25,759 nucleotides of DNA from a virus. Every line of letters starts with the position of its first letter. Position 1 is the first letter of the stretch. Below the pieces are notes generated by a model. It ran no database searches. It was not told the DNA's origin and worked only from the letters and a program-made list of their open reading frames with translations. Below, one piece after another: positions 3,171 to 10,432 of this stretch. Both the position numbers and the translations under genes were made by a program. The DNA is taken from IMG/VR virus record IMGVR_UViG_3300046665_000492, positions 1-25,759 of that record; one strand, given 5' to 3'.

Positions 3171-3302
3171 ATGTTAAAAACGTACACTTTAAAAGTCGGT
3201 TTCACTAAAAAAGAGGACGTAAAATTTTTAGCTGCTTCAAAAGATCAAGCTATTATTATCGCTAACGAAATAAAAAAGAGTAAGGAGGCTCCTAATAAAT
3301 GA
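3171..3302 (+). CDS. Small basic hypothetical protein (43 aa)
   Basis: ATG 3171 follows AAGGGAGTTGTTTAGG, the leader type used by several neighbours. The product (MLKTYTLKVGFTKKEDVKF to the C-terminus KSKEAPNK) is Lys-rich, with a beta-like start and one helix, as in small phage nucleic-acid-associated proteins. It overlaps the RHH-like gene by ATGA (3299-3302), so the two are translationally coupled and may be partners. Function unknown. Confidence 0.7.
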   Translation: MLKTYTLKVGFTKKEDVKFLAASKDQAIIIANEIKKSKEAPNK

Positions 3303-3502
3303 GCATGAAAACAAAGGGCGTTTCGTTTAATATGGAGGATCCTCACCAAGCTAAATTATATGAGTTCGCTTGCAATACTACGAATTTTTCCGGGCTTGTT
3401 AAAAATTTGTTATCTGTTCAAATGGAGCAAAGTAAACGAGTAGCTCCAGCTAAAAAAGTGATTCCCTCCTCTAATGGAGGGATCGTTTTTAAAGTGGATT
3501 AA
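3299..3502 (+). CDS. Ribbon-helix-helix-like DNA-binding protein (67 aa)
   Basis: Residues 4-40 have the RHH layout: a strand (KGVSFNME), a helix (HQAKLYEFAC), a turn (TTNFSG) and a second helix (LVKNLLSVQME), followed by a basic flexible tail. Proteins of this shape in plasmids and phages are centromere-binding partition factors, copy-number repressors, or relaxosome accessory proteins. AGGAGG is well placed. Its position 110 bp before the regularly spaced TTTCCAACC array makes it the prime candidate to bind that array. The exact role is inference. Confidence 0.7.
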   Translation: MSMKTKGVSFNMEDPHQAKLYEFACNTTNFSGLVKNLLSVQMEQSKRVAPAKKVIPSSNGGIVFKVD

Positions 3503-3567
3503 AGGTTTTTTGCTACACATATCAGAGAGCCAAGGGCGACTAAAATCCAGCCTATTATTTGAGTCAT
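3499..3567 (-). CDS. Second possible tiny membrane peptide (22 aa)
   Basis: A 22-codon minus-strand frame from ATG 3567-3565 encodes MTQ followed by a hydrophobic helix (IIGWILVALGSLICVA) and a basic end (KNL). GGAGG is present upstream but 15 bases away, longer than ideal, so this is weaker than the peptide at 3036. Equal length and topology on the same strand suggest the two could be related in function. Its 3' end overlaps the end of the RHH gene by 4 bases. Confidence 0.35.
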   Translation of the reverse strand: MTQIIGWILVALGSLICVAKNL

Positions 3568-3611
3568 AAGGGTTATTTTTCGCCTCCTTTTTTCGGTCAA
3601 AAATCGACAAA

Positions 3612-3784
3612 ATTCTTTCCAACCTTTTTTCCAACCTTTTTTCCAACCTAAATTTTCGATTCTTTCCAACCGACAAGGAGCCTAGAGCCTTACTCTCCCA
3701 AGGGTTACAGCGTTTAGGAAAAACGATTCTTTCCAACCGATTTTTTTCATTCTTTCCAACCTTTTTTCCAACTGTTTTTCCACA
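3612..3784 (+). repeat. Iteron-like TTTCCAACC array with symmetric spacing
   Basis: TTTCCAAC(C/T) occurs in direct orientation starting at 3616, 3628, 3640, 3663, 3730, 3753 and 3765, and a related TTTTCCACA (a DnaA-box-like word) aligns at 3777. The steps are 12, 12, 23, 67, 23, 12, 12, a mirror-symmetric series. The two central copies share the 17-mer CGATTCTTTCCAACCGA. An AT-rich stretch follows (3790-3827). Candidate origin, centromere, transfer origin or operator. A near-Spo0A box (ATCGACA, 3603-3609) abuts it. With the hairpin at 3828 this accounts for the 365-base gap between 3502 and 3869. Confidence 0.85.
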
Positions 3785-3827
3785 AACAAGAATTACTTAA
3801 AGAATTATATATATTTAAAAGAATATT

Positions 3828-3845
3828 GTCCGGTTTTTTCCGGAC
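3828..3845 (+). other. Perfect hairpin GTCCGG-T6-CCGGAC
   Basis: A 6-bp GC-rich stem with an all-T loop, just after the AT-rich stretch and 23 bp before the next gene. No T run follows on either strand, so it is not a normal terminator. It could be a leader structure or part of the adjacent origin-like region. Confidence 0.5.
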
Positions 3846-3868: not shown

Positions 3869-4294
3869 ATGTTCAAGGTAAAAACAAAAACTATTTCGTA
3901 TCATGACTTTATGGATGGCTCATACAAGTTAAAAGCAAAAGAGAAAACGATCCGTAATTTACACTTCGCTTTATTAGGAGCCTCGCTCGTTTATTCTGTA
4001 TTAGATCCGTTTGGAGGTACGATAGCTAGCGCCTCCGTTAGTGGAGCAATTACAGAGGGAGTACAAGATCGGATTATTAGAGCTTTTGATCCTATAATCC
4101 AATTAGCTCAAGGTTGCTCATATCCAGTAGCGTTTTTAATGTTAGTGCTAGGCGGAATAATGATAATGCTAGGACAAAAAACTCAAGGGCTACGGATCCT
4201 CAAGTATACGGCTATAGGATATATCGTTATCCAGTTTGCGCCCTCTATAATGGCTATACTTGCAGAAGTAGGAAAGGCGATTAGCCAATCATGA
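3869..4294 (+). CDS. Small multi-spanning membrane protein, VirB2/TrbC-like
   Basis: The 141-aa protein has a basic N-terminus (about 1-28), a hydrophobic segment near 30-46, an amphipathic loop, and two clear C-terminal membrane helices (YPVAFLMLVLGGIMIMLG, about 85-102, and YTAIGYIVIQFAPSIMAIL, about 113-131). This resembles small pilin-like subunits (VirB2/TrbC) or membrane partners of conjugation ATPases, though it lacks a conventional signal peptide. It overlaps the ATPase gene by ATGA, so the pair is translated together and probably forms a membrane complex. A holin is less likely given the long N-terminal domain and the partner gene. Confidence 0.6.
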   Translation: MFKVKTKTISYHDFMDGSYKLKAKEKTIRNLHFALLGASLVYSVLDPFGGTIASASVSGAITEGVQDRIIRAFDPIIQLAQGCSYPVAFLMLVLGGIMIMLGQKTQGLRILKYTAIGYIVIQFAPSIMAILAEVGKAISQS

Positions 4295-6456
4295 TACATT
4301 TACGAATAATACCGGACAATCAGATCGATAATACAAAAGTTGAAATTTTAGCTCGTAGTTTAAGCCGCTACGAGCCTCTTTTTAAGCGCTGGGATAGTCA
4401 AGCTAAAAAGTTTTCTAAACAGCCCTTTATTTCGTTCGAGTCCGTTTTATCCAGCAAAGGAGCCGAGTTTATCGTAACAGTTAAAGACGAAAGCGAGGAG
4501 ATAGCTCGGAAAGCTATAGAGAGTACGTTCCCTAAAGCGACGATAGAAAAAGTAGAGGATCCCTTTACGATTGAGCCTACTCTAACATCCGAACTCGCTT
4601 ATCATAACCATTACTTTTTATCCCTCCGGATAGATCGGAGAACTAATTCCCTACTAGCCGCTCTACTGGATACAATCAGTATGTTAACCGCTGGAGAGAT
4701 AATTTATGTACAGAATTTAGCGATACCGGCGGCGACTGATTGGTATATAGGAGCTGTAGAGGCGTATAAGAAGTTTAAAAACGGATCTTTGCCTAGAAAA
4801 GTACACCTAGAGAAAAAGGAGTTAACTAATTACGGTTTACGCCTAGCAGCAAAAACCCTAGCCTCTACCGCTAACTCGCTCGTACACTTGCTAGGATCAA
4901 AACCGGAGGATCCGATAGATCTAGACGGCTGGGATCGTTCTCAAATACTAAAAGAGGGATATTTAAGGCAAGAGACAATTAACAAGGCTAGAGGAGAGGC
5001 TTTCGACGTTACAATCAGAATTGGAGTAAAAGCTAACGATACGAATAGGGCTAGGGATCTTTTAAATATGGTTTATACGGCTTTTCGTTCCCTAGATGGG
5101 GATAATTATCTCAAAGACAAGAAAACGCCCTTAAAACGGACGTATGAGCTTTTAAAGGAAAGGCGGTCTAGTTTAAAGGCTCAAAAAGATTATATGAGCA
5201 TACAGGAGTTTTCTCGTTTGCTGCTAATGCCTCCGTATCACCTACAAGAAAAGTACAATATACAAAATGTATCTAGTCTTGAGCAAAAGCTACCGGATCG
5301 ATTATTAAAAGGCGGCATGTGGTTAGGAGAGCAGCAATTCCGAGGAAAGTCCGAAAAAGTTTATTTTCCCACAACTAACCTAGATGAGTTATGTTTGCCT
5401 AGAGTCGTTATAGGCGGTATGGGATCCGGTAAAACAAAAGGCTACGGCGCTAACTGGATGTATCAAGCTGTTTTAAATGGCTACGGCGCTTTATGTTTGG
5501 ATCCAGCTAAAGGAGAGATAGGGCTAGAATTAAAAAGTAAGTTACCGCCGGAGAAAATAATCCGGATCAATATAGGAGAGACGCCTATCTCTTTAGATTG
5601 GCGAGAGGCATACCATAGCAAAAACTCAAAAGGGAGGCTAGCTAATACGATCCTCTCCTTTTTCAATAACACAACCGACGAGACAGGCGCACAAACTAGC
5701 CGTTATATAAGAGCCGCTGTTATGGCTATGACGAGCGGAAAGCTCTCGGAGATACTTTCTATACTGGAGGAGCCAAAAACTCGAGAGGAGGCGATTTCGA
5801 GACTCTCGGACGGTATCCATAAAACCACGCTACAAGATTTACATGAGCATAGCGACGGACGCCGGAGACAGATCCTCGAGCCTATTTTAAATCGTTTTGA
5901 TCTAATTCTAGGCGACGAGTTTCTAAGTAGCTGCTTTAATGCCGATAAGGGCATAGATCTAGTCGAGCTTATGAGCCAAAAGAAAGCAATTATATTTGAT
6001 GTTCCTAAAAGTATTGTAGGCGAGGAGGGCGTCGAGATTATAGGGAGTCTTATTAGCACGAAAATAGACATAGCTATGACGCTCCGAAAAGAAAAGGATC
6101 AATTCCCTTTCTTTGTTGTGATGGATGAGCCTCACCAGTATTCTAAAAGCGCTCGAGTTTGGAAAAACGCCTCCGTAGAAAGTCGTAAATGGAGAGTCGG
6201 GTACGTTTGGATGTTTCATGAATGGAAACAAATTAACGCAGATCTCCGGGATATCATTAAAAGTGCTTTACCTCACTATCACATATATTCTAGCTCGAAA
6301 AATACGTATAAAGACTTGCTCGATGAATTAAGACCGTTAACCCTAGAGGACTGTATGAAAACAAAAACTCACTATGCTATTAACTCTATAAGATCCGGCG
6401 GAGACTATATAAAACCATTTGTAGCAAAAATGGCTCCTCCTCCGAGTATGCAATAG
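4291..6456 (+). CDS. VirD4/VirB4/HerA-type DNA-translocation ATPase
   Basis: The 721-aa protein has an N-terminal domain of about 365 residues and a RecA-like motor. Walker A is GGMGSGKTKG (375-384); Walker B is FFVVMDEPHQY (607-617). LDPAKGEIG (403-411) fits the strand after Walker A seen in coupling proteins and VirB4/HerA ATPases. The N-terminal part has no strong membrane helix, so anchoring would come from the coupled protein at 3869. Known relatives pump DNA or protein during conjugation, type IV secretion or chromosome handling. It is not the phage terminase, which is present separately at 24587. No relaxase is in the window. Confidence 0.8.
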   Translation: MIHLRIIPDNQIDNTKVEILARSLSRYEPLFKRWDSQAKKFSKQPFISFESVLSSKGAEFIVTVKDESEEIARKAIESTFPKATIEKVEDPFTIEPTLTSELAYHNHYFLSLRIDRRTNSLLAALLDTISMLTAGEIIYVQNLAIPAATDWYIGAVEAYKKFKNGSLPRKVHLEKKELTNYGLRLAAKTLASTANSLVHLLGSKPEDPIDLDGWDRSQILKEGYLRQETINKARGEAFDVTIRIGVKANDTNRARDLLNMVYTAFRSLDGDNYLKDKKTPLKRTYELLKERRSSLKAQKDYMSIQEFSRLLLMPPYHLQEKYNIQNVSSLEQKLPDRLLKGGMWLGEQQFRGKSEKVYFPTTNLDELCLPRVVIGGMGSGKTKGYGANWMYQAVLNGYGALCLDPAKGEIGLELKSKLPPEKIIRINIGETPISLDWREAYHSKNSKGRLANTILSFFNNTTDETGAQTSRYIRAAVMAMTSGKLSEILSILEEPKTREEAISRLSDGIHKTTLQDLHEHSDGRRRQILEPILNRFDLILGDEFLSSCFNADKGIDLVELMSQKKAIIFDVPKSIVGEEGVEIIGSLISTKIDIAMTLRKEKDQFPFFVVMDEPHQYSKSARVWKNASVESRKWRVGYVWMFHEWKQINADLRDIIKSALPHYHIYSSSKNTYKDLLDELRPLTLEDCMKTKTHYAINSIRSGGDYIKPFVAKMAPPPSMQ

Positions 6457-6570: not shown

Positions 6571-6762
6571 ATGAATAGTAAGATTGGTCTAGAAAGTAAA
6601 ATCGACGCTCTACGCTCCGCTATGGTAGCCGCTGGAATGAGTAAAGGGTTTACGGATCCGGAAACGATCCGCCTTTCTCAAGAGCTAGATTTATTAATAC
6701 ATGAAGCAATGGTAAACGAAAAACGCAAACAAGAGGAGAGTAAATATGTATACAATCGATGA
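6571..6762 (+). CDS. Spo0E-like aspartyl-phosphate phosphatase
   Basis: The 63-aa protein matches the Spo0E family pattern: a first helix (LESKIDALRSAMVAAGMSKG), a link (FTDPETIRL) and the signature SQELDLLI in the second helix. Family members (Spo0E, YisI, YnzD) form a two-helix hairpin that dephosphorylates Spo0A~P, delaying sporulation. Length is typical and the SQELD signature is intact. Its promoter carries exact Spo0A boxes on both sides, so a phage-borne feedback loop on host Spo0A is likely. The last 17 bases overlap the ERF gene, tying its expression to the recombination genes. Confidence 0.88.
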   Translation: MNSKIGLESKIDALRSAMVAAGMSKGFTDPETIRLSQELDLLIHEAMVNEKRKQEESKYVYNR

Positions 6763-7708: not shown

Positions 7709-8647
7709 ATGGATCAAAAGCATTTACAGGTTTTAAACAGAATTGATGATCTAGAGAATGAGCATTGTAAAGGCTGCAAAATTAAAGAGGAGCTACGCAA
7801 ACAAAACGGACAGCCGCTCCAGTATTGTATTTTTTCCTGCAAGATCGGAAAGAAAATAAAGCAGCTCGGCGGCGTCCTTGAGTATGGCATAGTACAAAAC
7901 GTACACGCTAAAGCGCTGGATCTCACCAAGGATAAATACATAGATCTACGTAACGACGGATTGAACGATAGACAGATCCGGGAGAAATACGGCATATCTC
8001 GAGCTACGATGTTTCGGAGAAAAGAAGCGTGGGAGCTTACAGGAAAAACCGGGTTATATAGTCATCGATACACTCCGCTTAAAAAGCTAACAAAAGAAAA
8101 ATTACAAGATATGTGCATGTTTATGACAGAGCAGGAGATAGCGGATAAATTAGGCGTATCTTTAGCTACGATACGGAAATATCGTTATAGATGGGGAATA
8201 GAGTTAGTTTTTGGTAAAGCAAAAGATAAATACAGCAAAACCGAGTTTCTTTATCTCCGGGATAAAAAAGGACTCAATAGAGCGCAGATATGCGAGCTAT
8301 GGGAGGTTTCGGAAAGTACCCTTTATATCCTAATGAAAGAGTGGGGATTAATTAAAGAGCGTCGTTATGCCAATAAAGAAGGGTTAACGAAAGAGCGATT
8401 AACGGAGCTTGCTAAAGCACATACTGATATAGAGATAGCAGCAATGTACAACTTTACAAAAAATACCGTTTGGAAGTACCGGAAAAAGTGGGGAATACCA
8501 GCTTTAAAGCGTGAGATCCCGGCAAAAGCTTTAAAGAAAATGTTAGCCAAAGGCATGAAGCGTAAAGACATAGCCGAGCATTACGGCGTTAACGTTTCGA
8601 CAATTTATAAAAAGATCATCAAATACCGACAACAAAATTTATTATAA
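7709..8647 (+). CDS. Zinc-knuckle protein with five tandem HTH units
   Basis: Residues 19-44 hold HCKGC and YCIFSC, a Cys4 site like the zf-C2HCIx2C zinc-finger family of Bacillus phages. Then come five homologous units of about 40-50 residues, each ending in a helix-turn-helix: NDRQIREKYGISRATMF (about 86-102), EQEIADKLGVSLATIRKY (141-158), NRAQICELWEVSESTLY (190-206), DIEIAAMYNFTKNTVWKY (240-257) and KRKDIAEHYGVNVSTIY (284-300), the first four followed by a W/R-rich end. Such a chain could read a long repeated DNA site or recruit resolvase/transposase-like partners. No catalytic domain is visible. It sits alone between a terminator and P6. Confidence 0.8.
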   Translation: MDQKHLQVLNRIDDLENEHCKGCKIKEELRKQNGQPLQYCIFSCKIGKKIKQLGGVLEYGIVQNVHAKALDLTKDKYIDLRNDGLNDRQIREKYGISRATMFRRKEAWELTGKTGLYSHRYTPLKKLTKEKLQDMCMFMTEQEIADKLGVSLATIRKYRYRWGIELVFGKAKDKYSKTEFLYLRDKKGLNRAQICELWEVSESTLYILMKEWGLIKERRYANKEGLTKERLTELAKAHTDIEIAAMYNFTKNTVWKYRKKWGIPALKREIPAKALKKMLAKGMKRKDIAEHYGVNVSTIYKKIIKYRQQNLL

Positions 8648-9499: not shown

Positions 9500-10432
9500 A
9501 TGAGCGCTGGATGGATCAAGATACATAGAAAATTACAACATAGCGAAATATTTAAAGATCCGGATCTCCTCCGGTTATGGATGTACAGTCTTATGAAAGC
9601 CTCACATTGTAAACGAGAAATTGTTTTCGACGGAGAGAAAGTAACGCTAGAAGCAGGACAATTTATAACCGGACGACAATCGCTAACAGATGATTTTAAT
9701 GACGGAGTACCGCCTAAAAAGCGAGTGCAAGACCGGACGCTATGGAATTGGGTTAAAAAGCTAGAAAAGCTAGGGAATATAACAGTAGAAAACGCCTCGA
9801 GTCGCCGTTACTCGATTATAACTATCCTCAAATGGAGCGAGTACCAAGAGGACGAGCCTAAAGAGGAGAAAAAGGAAAAAGATCCAGTAACGCCGCCGGA
9901 GGTAGTAACCGAGGAGGATAACGAGGATATGAGCGAATTTTTAGAAGCAGCAAAAAGCAAGGAGCTAGCTCCAGTAAAAGAGGAGAAAGCTAAAAAGGGG
10001 AAACGAGTTTACTCTAAAGAGGACGTAGAGTTTAAACTCGCCGGATGGTTGTATAAGAGAATGCTAGATAATAATCCGAACGCTAAAAAGCCTAACCCTC
10101 AAAAATGGAGCGACGTTATCCGCTTAATGATCGAGCGTGATAAACGAAAGCCGGAGGAAATAAAGGCGGTTATTGATTGGAGCCAAGATAGCGACTTTTG
10201 GATGAGCAACATTTTAAGCCCGGATAAACTCCGTAAACAATACGATACGTTATTTATGCAGATGAAAAAACAAAATGATAAGGCTACTCGGTTAGCGGCT
10301 GGCGGAGGTTCTCGATTAAACTCCGGTAGTTCTAAAAGCGAGCGCAAAAATGATCTTTTACGTGGAATGATGGAAAAGGAGGCGCTACCTCATGGAAAAG
10401 AGGGAAATAATACAGCTTTTCGCCTTAATTAA
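9500..10432 (+). CDS. Phage replication initiator, DnaD-like
   Basis: The N-terminus (GWIKIHRKLQHSEIF, then LLRLWMYSLMKASH, GQFITGRQSL and TLWNWVKKLEKLGNI) is the winged-helix organiser domain common to Gram-positive phage DnaD-type initiators. A Glu/Lys-rich linker (about 115-165) leads to a helical C-terminal region (residues 175-265: WSDVIRLMIERD, IDWSQDSDFWMSNILSPDKLRKQY) like the DnaD/phage-replication-organiser tail that binds origin DNA. It acts before helicase loading, and the next two genes are the loader and the helicase, overlapping in order. GAGGAGG is well placed. Confidence 0.82.
   Translation: MSAGWIKIHRKLQHSEIFKDPDLLRLWMYSLMKASHCKREIVFDGEKVTLEAGQFITGRQSLTDDFNDGVPPKKRVQDRTLWNWVKKLEKLGNITVENASSRRYSIITILKWSEYQEDEPKEEKKEKDPVTPPEVVTEEDNEDMSEFLEAAKSKELAPVKEEKAKKGKRVYSKEDVEFKLAGWLYKRMLDNNPNAKKPNPQKWSDVIRLMIERDKRKPEEIKAVIDWSQDSDFWMSNILSPDKLRKQYDTLFMQMKKQNDKATRLAAGGGSRLNSGSSKSERKNDLLRGMMEKEALPHGKEGNNTAFRLN

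What the first reader, a model, noticed from the sequence alone, without database searches (positions are those of the whole stretch)
3603..3845. Mirror-symmetric iteron array next to an RHH gene
Direct repeats of TTTCCAACC have steps 12-12-23-67-23-12-12 and end in a DnaA-box-like TTTTCCACA and an AT-rich stretch, followed by a perfect T-loop hairpin. Multiples of about 11-12 bp put sites on one DNA face. This looks like a centromere, plasmid-type origin or transfer origin bound by the RHH-like protein encoded just upstream, hinting at a phage-plasmid lifestyle.
Basis: partly seen in the sequence, partly recalled or inferred. Interest (0 to 1): 0.75.

Follow-up and report, generated by a model that had tools for sequence, protein, structure and literature searches.

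The report
Likely RHH-bound repeat array in phage
A Bacillaceae-type phage carries eight regularly spaced copies of a short DNA word between a small DNA-binding-protein gene and genes resembling parts of a bacterial DNA-export machine; it is most likely where that protein docks to control, and perhaps tether the phage DNA to, this machinery.

Summary
The array is real: TTTCCAACC x6, one 8/9 copy and a weak eighth copy, with steps 12-12-23-67-23-12-12. It is far beyond chance. The DnaA box beside it is not significant, and nothing marks the hairpin as special.

The array lies in the gap between a ribbon-helix-helix (RHH)-like gene and a VirB2/TrbC-like gene followed by a VirB4/VirD4-type ATPase. 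About 45 phage and prophage loci share that ATPase. About 35 of them also encode an unannotated 17-32 residue membrane microprotein on the opposite strand, between RHH and VirB2. In this phage the array sits where the microprotein's promoter must be.

Relatives suggest RHH binding. Actin-linked RHH operons have 11-bp-step repeats upstream. VirB2-linked RHH genes of the D6E-like group have 5-6 copies of another 9-mer in two blocks. The exact array was found in no other genome examined.

Best reading: a multi-site RHH operator that may also form a centromere- or loading-site-like complex. The window shows no actin motor and no Replic_Relax-type relaxase, and its RHH lacks the actin-type tail, so 'centromere' and 'transfer origin' stay analogies. 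A displaced replication origin is the main rival: relatives keep replication iterons at or inside the initiator gene, but the window shows none there. No binding was tested.

The parts
3171..3302 (+). Small ORF (about 43 aa; one search lists it from TTG 3162) directly upstream of and overlapping RHH; resembles small ORFs in the same place in PK2.1, TP-84 and BpsM-61
   Evidence: similarity judged by eye, not by a search
3299..3502 (+). RHH-like protein, 67 aa, phrog_4223; predicted helices 15-26 and 30-47 after an extended N-terminus; tail NGGIVFKVD typical of many VirB2-linked RHHs
3463..3482 (-). Hairpin with a T-rich tail on the minus strand inside the 3' end of the RHH gene: likely terminator of the leftward microprotein transcript; similar hairpins in TP-84, PK2.1, 031MP003 and BpsM-61
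3511..3579 (-). Antisense 22-aa membrane microprotein MTQIIGWILVALGSLICVAKNL, one hydrophobic segment, with its own Shine-Dalgarno-like sequence
3616..3671 (+). Repeat block A: sites 3616, 3628, 3640, 3663 (steps 12, 12, 23)
3672..3729 (.). 58-bp spacer between the two blocks (67 bp start to start)
3730..3785 (+). Repeat block B: sites 3730, 3753, 3765 (8/9) and 3777 (6/9) (steps 23, 12, 12)
3780..3839 (.). AT-rich stretch (82% AT in the two 40-bp windows starting at 3780 and 3800)
3804..3832 (-). Candidate sigma-70-type promoter CGGACA-17-TATAAT reading leftward through the array to the microprotein gene (consensus match only; number of such sites in the region not above chance)
3828..3845 (.). 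Perfect 6-bp stem with T6 loop
3869..4294 (+). VirB2/TrbC-like membrane protein, 141 aa (PF18895 1.9e-6, above its cut-off; phrog_5422)
4291..6456 (+). T4SS-type ATPase, 721 aa (phrog_5156), Walker A GGMGSGKT and Walker B-like FVVMDEPHQ; modelled C-terminal half matches TrwB Z 27.8 and VirB4 Z 27.6

Best explanation
The array is a multi-site binding region for the RHH-like protein encoded directly upstream. Inferred mechanism: RHH dimers bind the 9-bp boxes cooperatively at 12- and 23-bp steps, giving two nucleoprotein blocks about the 58-bp spacer. This would control the leftward microprotein gene, whose promoter must lie in or beyond the array because only about 36 bp separate its start codon from the first box, and perhaps the rightward VirB2-ATPase genes. 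The multivalent complex may also present the RHH GG[IV]xF tails to a partner such as the ATPase, acting as a loading or tethering site for phage DNA, by analogy with TraM-TraD or ParR-ParM. Shown: the array, gene order, selection on the microprotein in relatives, ATPase fold class, and analogous repeats beside RHH genes of relatives. Inferred: that RHH binds, the regulation, and any DNA-tethering role.
For: Array far beyond chance and beside the RHH gene. In 16 actin-linked RHH operons the region -130 to -15 has direct repeats at 11-bp steps: 6 observed against 0.25 expected, 0 of 300 shuffles as high, and none at 11 bp in a control region further upstream (some loci are related to each other). 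VirB2-linked RHH2 genes of L028 and L056 are preceded by six GGTNATACC-type sites in two blocks, and L065 by five sites of a similar motif; 60 shuffles of each reach at most 3. D6E, L028, L056 and L065 keep two RHH paralogues, one next to the actin-like gene and one next to VirB2, so the VirB2 module has its own RHH. Tails separate the classes: actin-linked RHHs end in I, L or V (mostly SFI/EFI type), VirB2-linked ones mostly do not, and many carry GG[IVF]. The modelled ATPase is of T4SS type.
Against: No binding data. Only the D6E-like clade among VirB2-linked relatives has a comparable array, and there it lies upstream of RHH2, not between RHH and VirB2. TP-84, PK2.1, 031MP003 and BpsM-61 have none. 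The window steps are 12 and 23, not 11 and 22. No copy lies upstream of the RHH gene itself, so autoregulation as in the relatives is not seen. Motif and DNA-contact strand do not co-vary cleanly. No RHH Pfam or NCBIfam model matched the window protein.
Confidence: 0.55

Rival explanations
1. Replication origin: the boxes are iterons bound by the phage initiator (DnaD/O-like, 9500-10432), and the AT-rich stretch is the unwinding element.
For: 12-bp direct repeats plus an AT-rich flank look like an iteron origin. D6E has ACGATACGT x5 at exact 12-bp steps within its replisome-organizer gene (positions). No other iteron cluster is visible in the window, and none near its initiator.
Against: In relatives with visible iterons these sit at or inside the initiator gene (PK2.1 36243-36335, BpsM-61 7952-8039, D6E 34316-34364), not beside RHH; here the array is about 5.7 kb away. 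GC skew dips at the array but does not reverse across it. The DnaA box is at chance level. Phages with the same initiator family (Lrm1, C996, phiAT3) show no comparable array.
Confidence: 0.18
2. True type II (ParM-like) centromere: RHH is a ParR-like adaptor and the array is parC, with an actin-like motor encoded in the unseen part of the genome.
For: An actin-like gene lies directly upstream of an RHH gene in 16 relatives and upstream of the ATPase in SPO1. R1 parC is also split into two repeat blocks around a promoter (PMC5016525).
Against: No PF17989 match in the window or in its 99.98%-identical sister contig. The place upstream of RHH is taken by another small ORF. Complete genomes sharing that arrangement (TP-84, PK2.1, BpsM-61) have no PF17989 match. 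The RHH tail is not of the actin-linked type.
Confidence: 0.1
3. Transfer origin: the RHH is a relaxosome accessory protein and the array part of an oriT used with the VirB2-like protein and ATPase.
For: VirB2-like and T4SS-ATPase genes directly downstream. F TraM binds repeated oriT sites and the TraD tail (PMC12117103). Replic_Relax lies next to the ATPase in SPO1 and next to the FtsK-like and TrbC/VirB2 genes in Novomoskovsk.
Against: No Replic_Relax in the window, TP-84, PK2.1, D6E, 031MP003 or BpsM-61; other relaxase families were not searched one by one. No nic-site candidate was sought. No other T4SS channel gene was recognised.
Confidence: 0.06
4. Operator of another regulator, such as the 312-aa protein with about five HTH units (7709-8647).
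For: That protein, like the array, has no counterpart among the phage records searched, and tandem HTHs could read tandem boxes.
Against: It lies 4 kb away and nothing else links the two; RHH-linked arrays in relatives occur without such a protein being needed to explain them.
Confidence: 0.07
5. RNA-level element: the plus-strand transcript has UC-rich boxes every 12 nt (Rho-loading-like), or the minus-strand leader carries repeated GGUUGGAAA.
For: Pyrimidine-rich boxes at 12-nt steps on the plus strand; local GC skew falls to about zero.
Against: No unusual fold on either strand, no Rfam match. The 12/23 steps also suit helical phasing on DNA.
Confidence: 0.04

Closest known systems
parMRC centromere parC of plasmid R1 (type II partition)
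   Same: RHH-type binding protein, short direct repeats in two blocks about a spacer, position in a promoter region (PMC5016525)
   Different: No actin motor in the window, VirB2-linked RHH tail, 12/23-bp steps, linked to T4SS-like genes
F-plasmid TraM sites sbmA-C at oriT with the coupling protein TraD
   Same: RHH protein binding several DNA sites and paired with a VirD4-type ATPase (PMC12117103)
   Different: No relaxase recognised; RHH is only 67 aa with no tetramer domain; phage context; RHH-ATPase contact only inferred
RHH-linked repeat clusters of D6E-like phages (L028, L056, L065) found here
   Same: Dispersed ~9-bp boxes in two blocks beside the VirB2-linked RHH gene
   Different: Other motif (GGTNATACC type), boxes on both strands, placed upstream of RHH2
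Phage iteron origins such as PK2.1 GGGGTGACA x5 and D6E ACGATACGT x5
   Same: Short direct repeats at 12- or 23-bp steps
   Different: They sit at or inside the replication initiator gene

Membership tests
Type II (ParMRC) partition centromere | Direct repeats bound by an RHH protein | tested here: inconclusive
   Repeats confirmed; RHH fold predicted; binding not testable
Type II (ParMRC) partition centromere | Actin-like motor gene in the same operon | tested here: not met
   No PF17989 match in the window or sister contig; the gene upstream is another small ORF
Type II (ParMRC) partition centromere | Adaptor tail of the actin-linked class (ends in I/L/V, SFI/EFI type) | tested here: not met
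   Window tail is NGGIVFKVD
Iteron replication origin | Array beside or inside the initiator gene | tested here: not met
   Initiator at 9500-10432, array at 3616-3785
Iteron replication origin | AT-rich unwinding region next to the iterons | tested here: met
   82% AT from 3780; equally expected of promoters
Iteron replication origin | DnaA boxes above chance | tested here: not met
   21 against 19 expected
Iteron replication origin | Autonomous replication | not testable with these tools
   Needs an experiment
Conjugative oriT | Cognate relaxase | tested here: inconclusive
   PF13814 absent from the window; other relaxase families not searched one by one; window is a fragment
Conjugative oriT | Coupling or T4SS-type ATPase nearby | tested here: met
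   Z 27.8 to TrwB, 27.6 to VirB4
RHH protein family | Strand-helix-helix fold | tested here: inconclusive
   Predicted helices 15-26 and 30-47, pLDDT about 95 there; no RHH Pfam/NCBIfam model matched and no PDB fold match, the model being a small monomer

The most novel reading that the evidence does not exclude
The array is the DNA-loading site of a reduced, relaxase-free T4SS-like device of phages (RHH adaptor, antisense membrane microprotein, VirB2-like subunit, VirB4/VirD4-type ATPase) that anchors or moves phage DNA at the host membrane or between cells.
Probability: 0.12. Interest if true: 0.85.

Novelty: new variant of a known kind. Interest (0 to 1): 0.48.

Why it matters
Genes resembling conjugation parts (VirB2-like protein plus T4SS-type ATPase) are shared by SPO1-, TP-84- and D6E-type Bacillaceae phages with, as far as found here, no assigned role. 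If the array is the RHH docking site, it gives a concrete DNA handle for asking what this module does: regulation only, partition, or DNA transport. The conserved antisense microprotein is an overlooked component that any model of the module must include.

Tried and rejected
Pattern scans of IMG/VR for the same boxes gave only unrelated contigs; one hit in 397 genomes of the order, not followed up. A family-wide ATPase search gave no closer full-length relative. The idea that similar RHH N-terminal strands predict similar boxes was tried: D6E has TTTTCAACC upstream of its actin-like gene, but L082 with the same KTKG strand has a different repeat, so it was dropped. A DnaA box and a structured RNA were rejected. 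RHH fold searches against PDB gave nothing, which is no evidence against the fold. PDB sequence profile searches with the RHH and ATPase alignments gave nothing credible. Paper searches found no description of this phage module (open-access library only).

Full report
OBSERVATION. Boxes TTTCCAACC lie at 3616, 3628, 3640, 3663, 3730, 3753, an 8/9 copy at 3765 and a 6/9 copy at 3777. The mirror concerns spacing only, and needs the weak last box. Six copies of a 9-mer in 283 bp exceed all 2000 local and 200 whole-window shuffles, and no other place in the window has four copies of a 9-mer within 300 bp. The DnaA box is at chance level; the hairpin is real.

CONTEXT. The record is a 25.8-kb virus fragment with phage terminase, DnaB-like helicase, helicase loader and DnaD/O-like initiator genes, an ERF recombinase and, by its sequence, an SSB. 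Around the array, in order: a small ORF, the RHH-like gene (3299-3502), a leftward microprotein gene (3579-3511), the array, a VirB2/TrbC-like gene (3869-4294) and an ATPase (4291-6456). The modelled ATPase matches conjugation ATPases TrwB (Z 27.8) and VirB4 (Z 27.6) over its C-terminal half. Homologous ATPases occur in TP-84, PK2.1, D6E, 031MP003, BpsM-61, more distantly in SPO1, and in about 40 further phage and prophage loci, all at about 51% identity or less over the full length. A sister contig is 99.98% identical over the 4,964 bases compared but starts at 5490, to the right of the array.

MICROPROTEIN. About 35 of these loci carry, on the opposite strand between RHH and VirB2, a 17-32 residue peptide with one hydrophobic segment and a ribosome-binding-like sequence. 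Substitutions concentrate at third codon positions in several groups; the D6E group shows 20 synonymous and no non-synonymous differences. In the window and in TP-84, PK2.1, 031MP003 and BpsM-61 a strong hairpin with a T-rich tail on the minus strand lies in the 3' end of the RHH gene, as a terminator of a leftward transcript would. In compact relatives only about 57-66 bp separate microprotein and VirB2 start codons; in the window the gap is 290 bp and is filled by the array. Because only about 36 bp lie between the microprotein start and the first box, its promoter must be inside or beyond the array.

RELATIVES AND RHH. An actin-like gene (PF17989) was found in 19 of 48 records. It lies directly upstream of an RHH gene in most of these, including D6E, and upstream of the ATPase in SPO1. 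These operons have repeats at 11-bp steps just upstream: 6 observed, 0.25 expected, 0 of 300 shuffles. D6E, L028, L056 and L065 have a second RHH next to the microprotein and VirB2. In L028 and L056 it is preceded by six copies of a GGTNATACC-type box in two blocks, and in L065 by five similar boxes; shuffles reach at most 3. Actin-linked RHHs end in I, L or V, a tail type reminiscent of actin-binding adaptors; VirB2-linked ones mostly do not, and many, including the window's, have GG[IVF]. So the window's RHH belongs by position and tail to the VirB2-linked class.

INTERPRETATION. Repeat arrays beside RHH genes recur in this gene neighbourhood with changing motifs. That is what is expected of an RHH protein and its co-evolving multi-site operator, though it does not prove binding. 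I therefore favour an RHH-bound operator that may double as a nucleoprotein platform, by analogy with the split R1 parC (PMC5016525) or TraM-TraD at oriT (PMC12117103). [quoted passage not shown]

RIVALS. Replication origin: relatives with visible replication iterons have them at or inside the initiator gene, which argues against the array. The window, however, shows no iterons near its own initiator, so this is not excluded. Centromere with a motor: no actin-like gene in the window. Transfer origin: no PF13814 in the window. Another regulator and an RNA-level role remain possible with low weight.

LIMITS. Functions are inferred from sequence and position. Shuffles do not correct for relatedness among loci.

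Noticed in passing
window 3511-3579 (minus); about 35 related loci such as L025-L049, L056-L065, L069-L077: Conserved, unannotated 17-32 aa membrane microprotein encoded antisense between RHH and VirB2 genes; coding-type substitution pattern (D6E group 20 synonymous, 0 non-synonymous).
   Followed up: partly
D6E (L008 1531-2367), SPO1 gp27.9 (L014 1441-2460), L028, L038-L042, L054, L056, L060-L062, L065, L073, L082, L083, L088: Actin-like (PF17989) genes upstream of RHH genes or, in SPO1, of the T4SS-type ATPase, suggesting ParM-like segregation modules in phages and prophages.
   Followed up: partly
SPO1 gp27.3, Novomoskovsk 43383-43844, contigs of L082 and L088: Replic_Relax (PF13814) proteins; in SPO1 directly downstream of the ATPase, in Novomoskovsk between the FtsK-like and TrbC/VirB2 genes.
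   Followed up: no
PK2.1 36243-36335 (L107), BpsM-61 7952-8039 (L104), D6E 34316-34364 (L106): Iteron arrays at or inside replication initiator genes, probable phage origins; D6E repeats have exact 12-bp steps.
   Followed up: partly
window 7709-8647: 312-aa protein with an N-terminal zinc-finger match and about five tandem HTH units; no match among phage records by tblastn.
   Followed up: no
window 3285-3299 and 3970-3984: 15-bp perfect inverted repeat joining the RHH ribosome-binding region and a stretch inside the VirB2-like gene.
   Followed up: no
window 6571-6762: Spo0E-like sporulation regulator (PF09388, 8.2e-13); Spo0E-like genes also lie downstream of the ATPase in PK2.1 and BpsM-61.
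   Followed up: no
L018, L022, L023, L024: Unrelated phage contigs with paired TTTCCAACC boxes; in L018 one lies just upstream of an integrase-like ORF and others near apparent tRNA-end sequence.
   Followed up: no
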